DNA from: an uncultured Phycisphaerae bacterium
GTDB lineage: Bacteria; Planctomycetota; Phycisphaerae; UBA1845; Fen-1342
Direction: 5' to 3'
DNA: 64,000 bases
NCBI GenBank assembly: GCA_937928595.1
Contig: CALGJV010000011.1
Location: 186,001 to 250,000 of the forward strand
A model generated the notes under the pieces. That model saw nothing but the letters and a program-made list of their open reading frames with translations. It was not told the DNA's origin and did no database searches. Shown here piece by piece: positions 47,094-57,059 of this stretch. A program made the translations under genes and the position numbers. Within the stretch, counting starts at the first letter, position 1; the number at the start of each line of letters is the position of its first letter.

Positions 47094-48385
47094 GGGTGCT
47101 GCTCGCCACCATGCAGTACGGCCGCGGCTACGCGTTCGGCACCGAGCGCTATGTGACGTTGCTCCGCGACGGCCTGGCGGCGCGCGGGCACACCGCGGTC
47201 GTGCTGGCCGGCGACCCGGAGCATCGCGGGCCGGATGTACCGCTCGGGATGCCGCGGCCGGACGAGCCGGAGATCCTGCACGCTCCGGCGCGCGGGTGGT
47301 CGGCGGTCCGCGGGCCGGGCCGGCGGGCGTGGGAAGCTCTGCTGCACCGCCTGCGGCCGGACGTCGTGCATGTCGTCAACGCCGCGCACATCGGGGCCGG
47401 GTTGATCGAGGCGGCGCGGCGGCGCGGGTGTGGCGCGGTGGTGACGGTGGTCGATTTCTGGTGGATTTGTCCGCGGCACACGCTGTTGCACCACCGCGGC
47501 GGCGTTTGTTCCGGCGACGTGCCGTGGCACGAATGCCTGCGGTGCGTGCTGGCGGGCAATCCGCGGCCGTGGGCGCGGTGGCTGGCGCGGCACGGCCTCA
47601 CGGCGTACACCGTGCTGCCGGTGCTGTGGGCCGCGTCGGGGCTGGCACGCGGCCTCGCGCCGGATGAGCTGGCCCGGTTGACGCATCGCCGGGCGTGGCT
47701 GCTGGCGGCGCTCGACCGGGCCGATGCGGTCGTGTTCCTGTCGCGCGGAGCTCAGCAGCGGCTGGGGCCGCGCCTGACCCGGGCGGCGCAGCACCTGGTG
47801 CCTGTCGGCCTCGAACCGCGCTGGTTCGCCGCGCGTCGCACGGAGCCGCTCCCCCCGGGGCCGCGCGATCCGGCCGGGCTGACGCTCGGCTACGTCGGGG
47901 CGCTCGCGCCGCACAAGGGGCCGCATCTCCTCCTGGCGGCGTTGCGACGGCTCGGTTGGACGCGCACGGCAGTCCGCATGGCCGGCACGGCGGTCGATGC
48001 GGGCTACGCGGCGGAGCTGCGCGCGGCGGCGGCCGGGTTGCACGTCGAGTTCCGCGGGCGCGTGCCGACCGAAGCGATGCCGGAGTTCCTGCGCGGGCTC
48101 GATGCGCTGGTGGTGCCGAGCACGTGGCCGGAGAACCAGCCGCAAACGGTGCTCGAGGCGCTGACGACCGGCACGCCGGTGCTGGCCAGTCGCGTGGATG
48201 GCATTCGTGAGGTCGTGCCGGACGAGCGGAGCCTGTTCGAGCCGGGATCGGTGGAATCGCTCGCGGCGCGGCTCGAGGCGTGGGCGGCGGACCCGCCGCG
48301 CGAGCGACCGCCGCCGCCGTGGACGGCCGACGAGATGGTGACGGCCACGGTGCGCGTGTACGAGGCGGCGGCGAGGGGCGAGTAG
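47090..48385 (+). CDS. Glycosyltransferase family 4-like (GT-B fold)
   Basis: A 431-residue glycosyltransferase. The N-terminus has TMQYGRGYAFGTERYV and VHVVNAAHIGAGLIE. A Cys-rich loop in the middle (WWICPRHTLLHHRGGVCSGDVPWHECLRCV) is typical of this subgroup, where an acceptor-side domain carries Cys and His. The C-terminus has LGYVGALAPHKGPHLLLAAL and the WPENQPQTVLEALTTGTPVLAS donor-binding loop. GAGGAG is about eight bases upstream, and the ATG overlaps the preceding stop, so both genes are coupled. A seven-base tandem repeat begins at the stop codon. Confidence 0.88.
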   Translation: MRVLLATMQYGRGYAFGTERYVTLLRDGLAARGHTAVVLAGDPEHRGPDVPLGMPRPDEPEILHAPARGWSAVRGPGRRAWEALLHRLRPDVVHVVNAAHIGAGLIEAARRRGCGAVVTVVDFWWICPRHTLLHHRGGVCSGDVPWHECLRCVLAGNPRPWARWLARHGLTAYTVLPVLWAASGLARGLAPDELARLTHRRAWLLAALDRADAVVFLSRGAQQRLGPRLTRAAQHLVPVGLEPRWFAARRTEPLPPGPRDPAGLTLGYVGALAPHKGPHLLLAALRRLGWTRTAVRMAGTAVDAGYAAELRAAAAGLHVEFRGRVPTEAMPEFLRGLDALVVPSTWPENQPQTVLEALTTGTPVLASRVDGIREVVPDERSLFEPGSVESLAARLEAWAADPPRERPPPPWTADEMVTATVRVYEAAARGE

Positions 48386-48405
48386 CGAATAGCGAGTTGC
48401 GGAGC
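48378..48405 (+). repeat. Degenerate heptamer tandem repeat spanning a stop codon
   Basis: GCGAGTA, GCGAATA, GCGAGTT and GCGGAGC in tandem. The TAG stop of the preceding glycosyltransferase (48383-48385) lies at the first junction. Confidence 0.5.
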
Positions 48406-48762
48406 GCGCACGGGCGTTTCGCGCTCGGATACGGCGCCGTGCGTCGGGCGCACGGGGCGGGCACGACCGATGTGCCGCGAGATCGGTGTGGCACCGGCCA
48501 ATGGCCGGTGCAGCGTGGGCCGCTGAGACCCGGCAACGTCAGCGCGCCGCGATCGGCATGGCAGCGGATGCCCCATCCCGCATCTGCCACCGAAGGCGGG
48601 ATATCGGGGTGGTGGACCGACAATGCAGTCACGCGGGGTGGCGGGGTGCTGACTCAGTCCCCCACCCCGAGGTGGTCGCTGCGCGCCACGCCTGCGGGGC
48701 ACCCCGCCACATGCTCACGTTCCCCCGTTCTCACCTGCTCACTTTCCCACGCGCCCGCACGC
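48386..48762 (+). other. Intergenic region between convergent glycosyltransferase genes
   Basis: No supported gene. Short frames in it show no domain or start signal. It holds a heptamer repeat at its left edge and an eight-base-period repeat (48705-48768) at its right edge, the latter reading in the sense of the minus-strand gene. Confidence 0.55.
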
Positions 48763-48768
48763 TCACCC
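48705..48768 (-). repeat. Eight-base-period degenerate tandem repeat (consensus ANGTGRGC)
   Basis: Read on the minus strand the units are GGGTGAGC, GTGCGGGC, GCGTGGGA, AAGTGAGC, AGGTGAGA, ACGGGGGA, ACGTGAGC and ATGTGGCG, with a constant eight-base period. The TGA stop of the GT2 gene (48763-48765) lies in the first unit. The same kind of repeat follows the gene ending at 55670. Confidence 0.65.
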
Positions 48769-49788
48769 GCCGCCATGACACCAGCGGGCGTACCACCGCA
48801 GCAGGCGGGTGCGCTTGGCCGCGGCGATGAGCCGGTACGCGCGCGAGCGCTGCACCGCCGTGAGGCGCAGACTGGGCGGCGCGGGCGGCACACGCTCGGC
48901 CGCCGTCGCGACCCACGGCCGGGCCCACGGATGCAGCAGCCGCCAACTCGTCGCGCGCTCGATGCCGTCCAGTGTGACGGCGGCCTGCCACTCGGCGAAG
49001 ATCGTCGCCTCGTCCGTGTCGCGCAGCCCAAGCAGCCGCACGAAGAGCGGCCGGTGGCGGGTGATCATGTGGCGAATCAACCGCTCGCGATGCGGCGCAA
49101 GGCGCCCGAGCATCGACGCGCCGGCCGCGTGCTGGCGGTAGCGGAAGAGCACGTACGGCAGGCGGACGCCGTGCCAGCCGGCGGCCAGCAGCGCGACCCA
49201 GAAGTCCCAGTCTTCGTACCCGTGCACCATGTCCTCGGCGTACCCGCCGACGGCATCGAAGGCCTCGCGGCGCACGAGCGCGGTGGCGGCGCTCAGGTTG
49301 CCGAGCAGCAGCCGGTATGGGTCATACGCCGGGCAGCACCACAGCCCGCGGCGCGCGCCGAACAGCCGTACCGTGCAGTAGGCGTAGCCCCACCGCGGTT
49401 CACGCCGCAGCACCGGCAGCAACTTCGCGATGAAACCGGGCGCGAGGGCGTCGTCGGCGTCCAGCGGCACGAAGAACGGCGCGGGCGTCGCGCGCACCCC
49501 GGCGTTGCGGGCCGCGGCCAGCCCCCGGTTCGGCTGCGAGAGCACGTGGAGGTCGGCCGGCAGCGGGGTGCTGCGCCGCGCCGCGCGGGCGGTCCGGCGG
49601 TTCGCATCCTTCAGATCGGACAGCAACTGCCGCGTGGCCGGGTCGGTCGAGCCGTCGTCCACGACGACGCACGACACGTTCGGATAGGTCTGGTTGGCGA
49701 CGCTCGCCAGCGCCTCGGGCAGGTAGGCCCCCTGGTTGAAGCACGGGATCACGACGGCCACCGGCGGGCTGTCCGCTGCCGCGGGCAT
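48763..49788 (-). CDS. Glycosyltransferase family 2 (GT-A fold)
   Basis: A 341-residue GT2 enzyme. VVIPCFNQGAYLPEAL begins the nucleotide-binding fold, VVVDDGSTDPATR binds the donor, and VPLDADDAL is the DxD-type metal site. GYEDWDFWVALLAAGW carries the ED motif expected for the catalytic base. The C-terminal 100 residues are Arg-rich and probably act in membrane or acceptor contact. It begins nine bases after the stop of the COG5610-type gene, as last member of a minus-strand unit. Donor and acceptor are unknown. Confidence 0.9.
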   Translation of the reverse strand: MPAAADSPPVAVVIPCFNQGAYLPEALASVANQTYPNVSCVVVDDGSTDPATRQLLSDLKDANRRTARAARRSTPLPADLHVLSQPNRGLAAARNAGVRATPAPFFVPLDADDALAPGFIAKLLPVLRREPRWGYAYCTVRLFGARRGLWCCPAYDPYRLLLGNLSAATALVRREAFDAVGGYAEDMVHGYEDWDFWVALLAAGWHGVRLPYVLFRYRQHAAGASMLGRLAPHRERLIRHMITRHRPLFVRLLGLRDTDEATIFAEWQAAVTLDGIERATSWRLLHPWARPWVATAAERVPPAPPSLRLTAVQRSRAYRLIAAAKRTRLLRWYARWCHGGG

Positions 49789-54713: not shown

Positions 54714-55670
54714 ATGTCCTCGCTCGCGCAGTTCCTCGACCCGGCGGTCATCCAGGAGGTCGGGCGGCTCGACCTGCGGGCGCGGTTCATCGTCGAGGGG
54801 TTCCTGGCCGGGCTGCACAGCTCGCCGCTGCGCGGCTACTCGGTCGAGTTCAGCGAGCACCGCAAGTACGTGCCGGGCGACGACCCGCGCACCATCGACT
54901 GGAAGGTTTACGCGCGGACCGATCGCCTGTTCGTGCGGCAGTACCAGGCCGAGACGCACCTCGCCTGCCACCTGCTGGTCGACACGTCGGCCAGCATGGG
55001 ATACGTCGGTGTCCTGGGAGGGAGCGGGCCGGCGTCCCCCTTCGACGTGTCGTCGGGGTCCGGACCCTGGCCGCAGCCGGCCGCCAAGCTGTTGTACGCC
55101 GTGCACTTGGCGGCGGCGCTGGGCTACCTGGTCACGCAGCAGCGGGACGCGGTGGGGCTCGGGCTGCTGGGCGAAGGCTTGCTGGAGCTGCGGCCGGCGC
55201 GGGCCCGGCGGGCGCACCTGGCGGACCTGCTGGCGGTGCTGGCGGGCGTCGTGCCGCGCGGCACGACCGGGCTCGCGCAGGGGATCCACGCCGCCCTGGG
55301 CCGCATTCCGCACCGGGGCGTCATCGTGCTGATCAGCGACCTGCTGACCGACACGGCGGCCGTGCTCGAGGCCCTGCATCACATCCGGTATCGCGGACAC
55401 GATCTGATCGTCTTTCACGTGCTCGACGCCGCCGAGACGGCGTTTCCGTTCGAGGGGCCGGTGCGACTGGAGGATCCCGAGAGCGGCGCGACGCTGGTGG
55501 TCGAGGCGGGGGGCGTGCGGGCTGCGTACCGCGCGGCGCTCGAGCGGTGGCGAGGCGAGCTCCGCGAGCGTGTCACGGCGCTGCGCGGCGACTACGTCGC
55601 GCTCGACACGGCCACGCCGTTCGACAAGGCCCTGGTGGAGTTCCTGGTCGAGCGCGCCCGGCGAAGGTAG
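54714..55670 (+). CDS. DUF58 family protein
   Basis: A 318-residue protein of the DUF58 (YeaD-like) family. The family region covers residues about 35-130: LRGYSVEFSEHRKYVPGDDPRTIDWKVYART. A von Willebrand A-like fold follows with the MIDAS-type DTSAS motif and LISDLLTD. Such proteins usually accompany MoxR ATPases and may act in chaperone-like or envelope roles. No MoxR gene is present here. There is no Shine-Dalgarno sequence before ATG 54714, and a -10 box ends eight bases upstream. An insertion of about 20 residues (GGSGPASPFDVSSGSGP) follows the MIDAS motif. An eight-base tandem repeat follows the stop. Confidence 0.87.
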   Translation: MSSLAQFLDPAVIQEVGRLDLRARFIVEGFLAGLHSSPLRGYSVEFSEHRKYVPGDDPRTIDWKVYARTDRLFVRQYQAETHLACHLLVDTSASMGYVGVLGGSGPASPFDVSSGSGPWPQPAAKLLYAVHLAAALGYLVTQQRDAVGLGLLGEGLLELRPARARRAHLADLLAVLAGVVPRGTTGLAQGIHAALGRIPHRGVIVLISDLLTDTAAVLEALHHIRYRGHDLIVFHVLDAAETAFPFEGPVRLEDPESGATLVVEAGGVRAAYRAALERWRGELRERVTALRGDYVALDTATPFDKALVEFLVERARRR

Positions 55671-55682
55671 AGCGGTGCAAGA

Positions 55683-55786
55683 GCGTGGCAACGTGGGCAG
55701 GTGGGCGGGCTGCAACGTGGGCAAGTGGGCAGGTGAGAGCGTGGGCACGTGGGAATGTGAGCAAGCGTGAACGCGAGCAGGTGGAA
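55683..55786 (+). repeat. Eight-base-period degenerate tandem repeat (consensus ANGTGRGC)
   Basis: From 55691 twelve units follow without a break in period: ACGTGGGC, AGGTGGGC, GGGCTGCA, ACGTGGGC, AAGTGGGC, AGGTGAGA, GCGTGGGC, ACGTGGGA, ATGTGAGC, AAGCGTGA, ACGCGAGC and AGGTGGAA. It begins 12 to 20 bases after the DUF58 stop and reads in the sense of that gene. It is the same family as the repeat at 48705-48768. Confidence 0.75.
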
Positions 55787-55829: not shown

Positions 55830-57059
55830 TCACCCTCCCGGTTTTTCACTTGTCATTTGACGTCGTGCGGCCGTCAGGCTCGCCGTGCCGATCGCCAGCA
55901 GCGGCATGAGCGGCACGCGGTAGCGCACGCTCCCCACGTACACGCAGTGCACGAGCGTGAAGTACAAGATCGGCGTCCAGAGCAGCACATGCAGCGTTCG
56001 CAGGTGCGGGGCGCGACGCAGAGACATCCCGAGGGCCGCCAGCGCGCCGATCAGCACGAACAGCGTGTACGCCGCGCTGACCGCGGCCGACGCGCCGCCG
56101 CGGTGCTCGGCGACGTTCGGCGTGGGGCTCCAGGTGCGCCCGAGCTTGATGCAGGCGAGCCGCACCATGCGGCCCGGGTCGGCCCGCATGGCCTCCAGCG
56201 CCCGACGCCGGAGGAACTCGTCGCGCCCGACCTCGCCGAGTTCGCGGAAAGTCGGGTCCGCCTCGAACTCCCGCAGGAACGCCTGATTGCTGCTCCCGTC
56301 GGCCTGCGGGCCCTGCGCGTCGTAGAGCGTGACGCCGCCGTTGGTCGACAGCCACGCAAACGAGCCCAGCACAGCTCGGTTGCGCAGTCCCCAGGGCAGC
56401 AGCGCCGCGCCCAGCGCGACCGCGGCCAGCCCCGCGCCGGCCAGGGCCCGCCGCCGGTCCCGGGCCATGACCAGCACGAGCCCCCACACGCCCACGGGCA
56501 GCACCGCCGCCGACGGGCGCGTCAGCAGCAGGGCCGCCGCGGCCGCCGCGTAGCCGATCAGCACGCGCCATCCCGGCCGCGGCTCGGCCGCCAGGTGCCA
56601 GGAGAACAGGCCGAACCCCAGCAGCAGGAGCGTGAAAATCGACTCGGTCAGCAGCAGATTGGCGAGGAAAACCGCGAACGGATCGCACGCGACGAGCAGC
56701 CCGGCCACGAGCCCGGCGCGCGGGCCGGCCGCGAGCCGCGCCCAACGGCGGGCGACGAGCACGCCGGCCGCGCTGATCGCAGCCTGAGCGAGTTTCGCGG
56801 CCACGATGCCGGCCGGTCCGAGCGCCGCGAACGGCGCGAGCACCAGCGGGTAGAGCGGCATGCGGGGGGCGTAGCGGCCGTCGTCGGACGCGAGCGTGCC
56901 GGCGGAGACCAGATTGGTGGCCAGCTGCCAGTGCAACTCCTCGTCCGGGTAGTCGAGCTCCGGGCCGAGCGTCGCAGCCCGGTAGATGACCCAGCCGCCG
57001 CGCAGTCCGAGGGCGAGCAGGAAGAGTAGGGCGGCGGACGGGATCCGGCGGGTGGTCAC
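55830..57059 (-). CDS. GT39/ArnT-like integral membrane glycosyltransferase
   Basis: A 409-residue protein with about ten hydrophobic helices. Near the N-terminus, ELDYPDEELHWQLATNL has the acidic pair expected in the first extracytoplasmic loop of lipid-phosphate-sugar-dependent transferases (GT39/GT83). YAPRMPLYPLVLAPFAAL and CDPFAVFLANLLLTESIF are typical of this superfamily. Acceptor is unknown. It starts with GTG, overlapping the tilS stop as GTGA, so translation is coupled to tilS even though the functions differ. The C-terminal part ends in a basic tail. Confidence 0.83.
   Translation of the reverse strand: MTTRRIPSAALLFLLALGLRGGWVIYRAATLGPELDYPDEELHWQLATNLVSAGTLASDDGRYAPRMPLYPLVLAPFAALGPAGIVAAKLAQAAISAAGVLVARRWARLAAGPRAGLVAGLLVACDPFAVFLANLLLTESIFTLLLLGFGLFSWHLAAEPRPGWRVLIGYAAAAAALLLTRPSAAVLPVGVWGLVLVMARDRRRALAGAGLAAVALGAALLPWGLRNRAVLGSFAWLSTNGGVTLYDAQGPQADGSSNQAFLREFEADPTFRELGEVGRDEFLRRRALEAMRADPGRMVRLACIKLGRTWSPTPNVAEHRGGASAAVSAAYTLFVLIGALAALGMSLRRAPHLRTLHVLLWTPILYFTLVHCVYVGSVRYRVPLMPLLAIGTASLTAARRQMTSEKPGG

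What the first reader, a model, noticed from the sequence alone, without database searches (positions are those of the whole stretch)
55683..55786. Twelve-unit, exact eight-base-period repeat after the DUF58 stop
Units vary (ANGTGRGC-like) but the period never slips over 96 bases, and since eight is not a multiple of three it is not coding. Sequence drifts while spacing is kept, which points to a structural or protein-binding constraint, or to a template mechanism, rather than simple slippage.
Basis: seen in the sequence. Interest (0 to 1): 0.52.

Follow-up and report, generated by a model that had tools for sequence, protein, structure and literature searches.

The report
Drifting eight-base repeats at gene ends
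The stretch after this gene is a real run of thirteen drifting eight-base units, one of many seven- and eight-base repeat runs that sit at the ends of genes in this group of bacteria, and it resembles gene-edge repeats already described in Xanthomonas and cyanobacteria.

Summary
In detail: window 55680-55785 carries 13 units in strict period 8 (57 of 98 lag-8 matches; 0 of 20,000 Markov shuffles reach it), unit about R-N-G-T-G-R-G-M. It lies between convergent genes, 9 nt after the DUF58 stop. A second array begins on its own gene's stop at 48768-48705 (minus strand). The genome has at least one more full array and two short ones. Seventeen of 27 genomes of the family have such arrays, against 17 of 391 others sampled in the phylum. 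A word-free scan shows a wider set of 7- and 8-bp arrays with unrelated units. They cluster at stops: 12 of 23 within 20 nt, 3.2 expected. Near gene edges the purine-rich strand points outward. In one related genus a single unit position is free while the other seven barely change. Structure, G-quadruplex, reverse transcriptase and REP-type transposase explanations are not supported. The same edge rule is in print for Xanthomonas heptamers (PMC4692102). I call it a new variant of a known kind; function is unproven.

The parts
55680..55785 (+). octamer array, 13 units of R-N-G-T-G-R-G-M type; purine-rich strand is the sense strand of DUF58
54714..55670 (+). DUF58 gene (PF01882), ends 9 nt before the array
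55830..57059 (-). PMT_2 (PF13231) glycosyltransferase-like gene, convergent with DUF58; its 3' end is 44 nt from the array
48705..48768 (-). second octamer array, about 8 units; its first unit overlaps the stop codon of the minus-strand gene 48763-49788
48378..48401 (+). heptamer array (GCGAGTA type) that contains the stop codon of the plus-strand gene ending at 48385; faces the second octamer array in the same convergent gap
48763..49788 (-). gene ending in the second octamer array (reads like a family 2 glycosyltransferase; that name is recalled, not searched)

Best explanation
The array is one member of a genome-wide population of degenerate 7- and 8-bp tandem arrays that live in non-coding DNA at gene edges, mostly directly after stop codons. 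Inferred mechanism: short units are gained and lost by slipped-strand mispairing or unequal exchange. Arrays that would grow into coding sequence are removed by selection, so they survive in the spacer. Point mutation makes the units drift while the gain and loss of whole units keeps the period exact. In this genome and in G015 (not in G009/G025) arrays look as if they grow outward from the gene edge on the purine-rich strand. Shown here: the period, the other copies, the gene-end placement, the strand rule near edges, and the uneven change across the unit in one related genus. Inferred: slippage as the motor, the direction of growth, and that any benefit to the cell is small or secondary.
For: Exact period against shuffles. 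Other arrays in the genome. Word-free census: own genome (464 kb) period 7: 2, period 8: 4, against Markov means of 0 and 0.5; G015 (400 kb) 14 and 5 against 0.2 and 0.1; G023 (400 kb) 1 and 0. Units differ between arrays of one genome, as expected of a general mutational process rather than one recognition site. Whole-unit gains and losses between orthologous arrays of G009 and G025 and between L072 and L236. Placement at gene ends and few arrays in divergent gaps in G009/G025 (2 of 41 against 18.5% of spacer length, p = 0.012). The purine strand's 5' side is nearer an ORF in 10 of 11 own and 14 of 14 G015 arrays, whichever way that ORF points. The same rule is printed for Xanthomonas and Nostoc (PMC4692102, section 13).
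Against: In G009 the variable letter of neighbouring units is hardly more alike than chance (40 of 127 against 0.255 expected), whereas fresh slippage should make neighbours alike. There seven of eight positions change less than synonymous sites (6 of 274; a simulation that allows for how arrays were picked expects 16.4 in 280, P = 0.0005), which looks like selection; at 0.6 of that rate it is only P = 0.064. The outward rule fails in G009/G025 (20 of 37), and unit changes there fall at both ends of arrays (my count: four at the 3' end of the purine strand, three at the 5' end). No relative close enough to the window's own species was found to watch this array change.
Confidence: 0.55

Rival explanations
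1. The arrays are selected binding platforms. A DNA- or RNA-binding protein reads seven of eight positions per unit at the 3' ends of transcripts, and the free position is simply not contacted.
For: In G009 the seven positions are 95-100% conserved over 167 units while the eighth is near uniform (A50 G43 T40 C34). Between G009 and G025 the free position differs in 10 of 38 cases and the others in 6 of 274, against 541 of 5050 at fourfold sites. Placement at stops with the purine strand in sense.
Against: Many different words with periods 7 and 8 occur in one genome, so one protein would not do, and 7- and 8-bp spacings cannot keep the same helical face. The arrays were found by a pattern that leaves the eighth position free, which inflates the contrast (allowed for). 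The locus is not conserved: 15 DUF58 relatives, no GTGRG array in 600 nt after the gene (one contig ends after 30 nt), and a different octamer in two.
Confidence: 0.22
2. The arrays act as structure: hairpins, terminators or G-quadruplexes at transcript ends.
For: Inverted pairs of arrays fold very well (L223 pair z = -10.5 and -8.0), and 8 of 40 G009 arrays lie in such pairs within 60 nt. The G009 word four times over matches the G-quadruplex pattern.
Against: The window array alone folds like its shuffles (z = -0.67, -0.25), has no quadruplex match and no terminator-like site around it. Several words (RNGTGATA, GCGAAT, GAAGTC) lack G-tracts. Letters at the free position match across inverted pairs in only 6 of 15 places.
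Confidence: 0.1
3. The arrays are written from a template, in the manner of a telomerase or a reverse transcriptase with a short RNA template.
For: Constant unit length, one free position per unit, and ends that tend to fall at GTG.
Against: No RVT_1 match in the window's genome (97.9% complete) or in G009, G025 and G002, all of which have arrays; 10 of 27 family genomes have one. Many words per genome would need many templates. A templated position should not be free.
Confidence: 0.03
4. The arrays are a mobile repeat of the REP or REPIN type, moved by a Y1 transposase.
For: Dispersed, intergenic, partly in inverted pairs; Y1 matches are common in the family (26 of 27 genomes).
Against: Units are not palindromic. 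G009, rich in arrays, has no Y1 match; G015 has 20 Y1 matches but 6 exact hits of the array pattern; G007 has 12 and none.
Confidence: 0.04
5. The arrays give stop codons in all three frames after a gene, which would explain a unit length that is not a multiple of three.
For: Two arrays in the window overlap a stop codon.
Against: In 17 arrays near stops 18 of 51 frames are closed, below the shuffle mean of 22.8; the main G009 word holds no stop codon (read from the word itself).
Confidence: 0.01

Closest known systems
GGGAATC / GGGANTN heptamers of Xanthomonas and GGGGA(C/T)T of Nostoc (PMC4692102; abstract passages and sections 10, 13, 15, 16 read)
   Same: Degenerate short tandem units dispersed through the genome, intergenic, rare between divergent genes, close to or overlapping the stop on the sense strand or before the start on the antisense strand, nearer the 5' neighbouring ORF whichever way it points; inverted pairs; some positions variable.
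   Different: Here the unit is 8 bp, the word differs, the window array has no G-quadruplex match by the usual pattern, and several unrelated 7- and 8-bp words share one genome.
TAACTGA heptamers of marine Beggiatoaceae, Cyanobacteria and Bacteroidetes (PMC4679880; abstract and outline read)
   Same: Short intergenic direct repeats in many copies, patchy across phyla.
   Different: Seven bases, related heptamers rare, mostly just before start codons.
STRR heptanucleotide repeats of filamentous cyanobacteria (recalled; seen only in search listings)
   Same: Short degenerate tandem repeats in many copies.
   Different: Seven bases and another phylum; not compared here.
(GATAGRA)n heptamers of Chloroflexus aurantiacus and 6-8 nt microsatellites of Burkholderia (PMC6749651, passages read)
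   Same: Dispersed repeats of similar unit length.
   Different: No gene-edge rule in the passages I read.
REP / BIME / REPIN elements (recalled)
   Same: Intergenic, often at 3' ends, often in inverted pairs.
   Different: Palindromic units of 20-40 bp with a partner transposase.

Membership tests
Degenerate gene-edge heptamer repeats (Xanthomonas/Nostoc type, PMC4692102) | Tandem units of constant short length with conserved and variable positions | tested here: met
Degenerate gene-edge heptamer repeats (Xanthomonas/Nostoc type, PMC4692102) | Unit of seven bases | tested here: not met
   Unit is eight for the window array; seven-base arrays of other words also occur
Degenerate gene-edge heptamer repeats (Xanthomonas/Nostoc type, PMC4692102) | Intergenic and close to gene edges | tested here: met
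   12 of 23 within 20 nt of a 3' end, 3.2 expected; 4 of the 27 arrays taken lay inside called genes
Degenerate gene-edge heptamer repeats (Xanthomonas/Nostoc type, PMC4692102) | G-rich or purine-rich strand runs outward from the nearer gene edge | tested here: met
   Within 30 nt: stop-sense 19, stop-antisense 1, start-antisense 5, start-sense 0; own 10 of 11, G015 14 of 14, but G009/G025 only 20 of 37
Degenerate gene-edge heptamer repeats (Xanthomonas/Nostoc type, PMC4692102) | Able to form G-quadruplexes | tested here: not met
   No match of the G3+N1-7 pattern in the window array; present in one of five own arrays
Degenerate gene-edge heptamer repeats (Xanthomonas/Nostoc type, PMC4692102) | Frequent inverted pairs | tested here: inconclusive
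   8 of 40 in G009; in the window's second gap the two facing arrays have different words
REP/REPIN elements | Palindromic unit with a Y1 (RAYT) transposase | tested here: not met
   Unit not palindromic; no Y1 match in G009 and no agreement between Y1 and array counts
CRISPR array | Repeats of 20 or more bases with unique spacers | tested here: not met
   8-base head-to-tail units without spacers
RT-templated (telomerase-like) repeat | A reverse transcriptase in the genome | tested here: not met
   No RVT_1 match in the window's genome
Cyanobacterial STRR | Heptanucleotide consensus and filamentous cyanobacterial host | not tested
   Known to me from recall and search listings only

The most novel reading that the evidence does not exclude
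A word-independent process adds 7- or 8-bp units to bacterial DNA in one direction, outward from gene edges on the purine-rich strand, and in some lineages leaves exactly one position per unit open to change. The unit length would be set by the machine (for example the length of a hybrid held by a polymerase), not by the sequence, so that phyla with unrelated words share nearly the same period and the same edge rule.
Probability: 0.15. Interest if true: 0.75.

Novelty: new variant of a known kind. Interest (0 to 1): 0.42.

Why it matters
Heptamer repeats at gene edges in Xanthomonas and Nostoc were studied as G-quadruplexes, and their function was left open (PMC4692102). Finding the same placement and strand rule in Phycisphaerae relatives with several words, some without G-tracts, separates the rule from quadruplex formation and points to a shared way such arrays arise or are tolerated. 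The one-free-position pattern in G009 gives a measurable handle on whether selection or unit turnover keeps the unit.

Tried and rejected
Reversed-pattern controls were near zero in most genomes but not in G001, G012 and G020, which seem to hold other octamer words; I did not follow these. A strict census cut-off (1e-9) found no array at all in the own genome. I relaxed it to 1e-5 after seeing that, and the window array still missed it, so the two window arrays were added by hand, and three more pattern-found own arrays. The 20- and 30-nt distances were chosen after looking at the placements; one search shows four cut-offs, with the effect fading from 30 to 150 nt.

Directional growth could not be read from orthologous arrays in G009/G025. 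Coding-type periods 6, 9 and 12 were set aside. A stop-codon net, hairpin pairing of the free letters, Rfam families (one hit at E 0.87, below its gathering score) and sigma-70 or terminator scans led nowhere. Gene positions come from a home-made codon-usage ORF caller, not a standard gene finder, so single distances may be off. The phage, plasmid and E. coli collections were not searched. The 38 viral-contig stretches were listed, not studied. The third-genome idea failed: L072 sits in an 11.3 Mb record and looks like a mis-binned contig.

The paper searches showed no description of such arrays in Phycisphaerae; they cover open-licence papers only.

Full report
What is there. Window 55680-55785 reads as 13 head-to-tail units of 8 bases in one register. 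Lag-8 identity is 57 of 98, with equal or higher values at lags 16 and 24 and no more than 0.40 at any other lag from 2 to 25. None of 20,000 Markov shuffles reached it at any lag from 5 to 13. Column counts give one invariant G, a near-invariant G, a mostly T column between them, and one column with all four letters. In the reading R-N-G-T-G-R-G-M the free letter stands just before GTG. The array lies 9 nt after the stop of a DUF58 gene (PF01882, 1.4e-46) and 44 nt from the 3' end of a convergent PMT_2 gene (PF13231, 6.6e-8).

Other copies. The pattern of three units with one mismatch gives 18 hits in the own genome against 1 for the reversed pattern. They fall in two arrays of this window, one array on contig 23 and two short ones on contigs 25 and 27. 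The second window array, 48768-48705 on the minus strand, begins on the stop codon of the gene 49788-48763. In the same gap the opposite gene ends inside a heptamer array at 48378-48401.

Relatives. Exact three-unit hits occur in 17 of 27 genomes of the family and 3 of 34 sampled from the rest of the order. In a phylum sample they occur in 18 of 392, one being the own genome, and the listed hits are mostly uniform repeats. Two family genomes are identical over the compared contigs to records titled Phycisphaerae bacterium: G006 to RS_17_44 and G009 to Gw_SlDig_bin_12.

A wider population. A scan for any period from 5 to 13, without a word, was run on 464 kb of the own genome, 400 kb of G015 and 400 kb of G023. 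Periods 7 and 8 stand out in the own genome (2 and 4; Markov means 0 and 0.5) and in G015 (14 and 5; 0.2 and 0.1), not in G023 (1 and 0; 0.1 and 0.5). Periods 6, 9 and 12 are also common, as coding repeats would give. The units differ from array to array. G009 and G025 hold at least AANGTGGG, RNGTGATA and CGAGGGAT types.

Placement. Of 27 period-7/8 arrays taken (25 census arrays of own and G015, plus the two window arrays by hand) 4 lay inside called genes. Of the other 23, 12 lie within 20 nt of a gene 3' end; random placement in the same spacers gives 3.2, and 0 of 2,000 draws reached 12. For 5' ends the count is 5 against 3.4. In the own sample 6 of 8 arrays are in convergent gaps, which hold 19% of spacer length (p = 0.001). 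In G009/G025 41 of 59 arrays are intergenic with both neighbours seen, 15 at contig edges and 3 in called ORFs; 33, 6 and 2 of the 41 are in tandem, convergent and divergent gaps.

Strand rule. Within 30 nt of a gene edge the purine-rich strand is sense at 19 of 20 stops and antisense at 5 of 5 starts (one ambiguous array dropped, nine orthologous G025 loci dropped). Purine content in the 60 nt after stops is 0.50-0.52 on average. Taken over all distances, the ORF on the 5' side of the purine strand is the nearer one in 10 of 11 own and 14 of 14 G015 arrays but only 20 of 37 in G009/G025. The rule is thus strong in two lineages and absent in the third. PMC4692102, section 13, states the same rule for Xanthomonas and Nostoc.

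Change over time. In 29 regions of G009, 167 AANGTGGG units have seven positions at 95-100% and the eighth near uniform; neighbouring units agree there in 40 of 127 cases, 0.255 expected. In eight orthologous locus pairs of G009 and G025 the free position differs in 10 of 38 cases, the others in 6 of 274, flanks in 228 of 3,550, fourfold sites in 541 of 5,050 and nearby intergenic sites in 146 of 2,248; a ninth pair was cut by a contig end and left out. Eight of the ten free-position changes are transitions, by my reading. Arrays were picked by a pattern that leaves this position free; a simulation of that choice at the synonymous rate still expects 4.2 and 16.4 changes instead of 10 and 6 (P = 0.008 and 0.0005). 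At 0.6 of that rate the figures are P = 0.0005 and 0.064. So the unevenness is solid, while the constraint relative to intergenic DNA is marginal. Whole-unit gains and losses occur at both ends of arrays.

The DUF58 locus. Of 15 relatives with 59-73% identical DUF58, none has a GTGRG array in the 600 nt after the gene (one contig ends after 30 nt). By eye, G009 and G025 have another octamer there, RNGTGATA, in one case with a slip in period. The array is therefore not conserved at this locus, although the place can carry arrays of other words.

Mechanisms tested. The window array folds no better than shuffles on either strand, while a G009 inverted pair folds very well. The window array has no quadruplex match. 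RVT_1 is absent from the own genome, G009, G025 and G002. Y1 transposase numbers do not follow array numbers. Arrays do not add stop codons. What is left is a mutational process of unit gain and loss confined to gene edges, with or without selection on the unit. I hold the first as more likely because words differ within a genome and because the locus is not kept, and I mark the direction of growth as inference.

Verdict. The feature is real and part of something general. It is placed like the gene-edge heptamers of Xanthomonas and Nostoc, but differs in unit length, word and lack of G-quadruplex capacity. I rate it a new variant of a known kind.

Noticed in passing
L021:1490-1540: A heptamer array (GCGAGTA type) lies about 30 nt after the octamer array on contig 23 of the own genome, so both periods can share one spacer.
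   Followed up: partly
L022:1610-1640: A heptamer run CTTCCCN with a free last letter follows a short octamer array in opposite orientation.
   Followed up: no
L321:17771-17852: A ten-unit octamer array of GNAGGCAC type in the own genome is statistically stronger than the array of the finding (5.6e-10).
   Followed up: partly
L072: A contig in an 11.3 Mb record titled Rhodopirellula is 98.4% identical to G009 over 3.3 kb; it looks mis-binned.
   Followed up: partly
L037: A contig titled Klebsiella pneumoniae (a metagenome bin) carries a four-unit mixed octamer array; the label may be wrong.
   Followed up: no
G001, G012, G020: The reversed control pattern has many hits in these family members (18, 94 and 4), which suggests further octamer words.
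   Followed up: no
L143-L180: 38 stretches of viral contigs hold four-unit GTGRG arrays; whether they are viral or host DNA was not examined.
   Followed up: no
L371:10012-10135: An 11-base array of CTGACCGAGCG type, about 11 units, in G023, a family member without octamer arrays.
   Followed up: no
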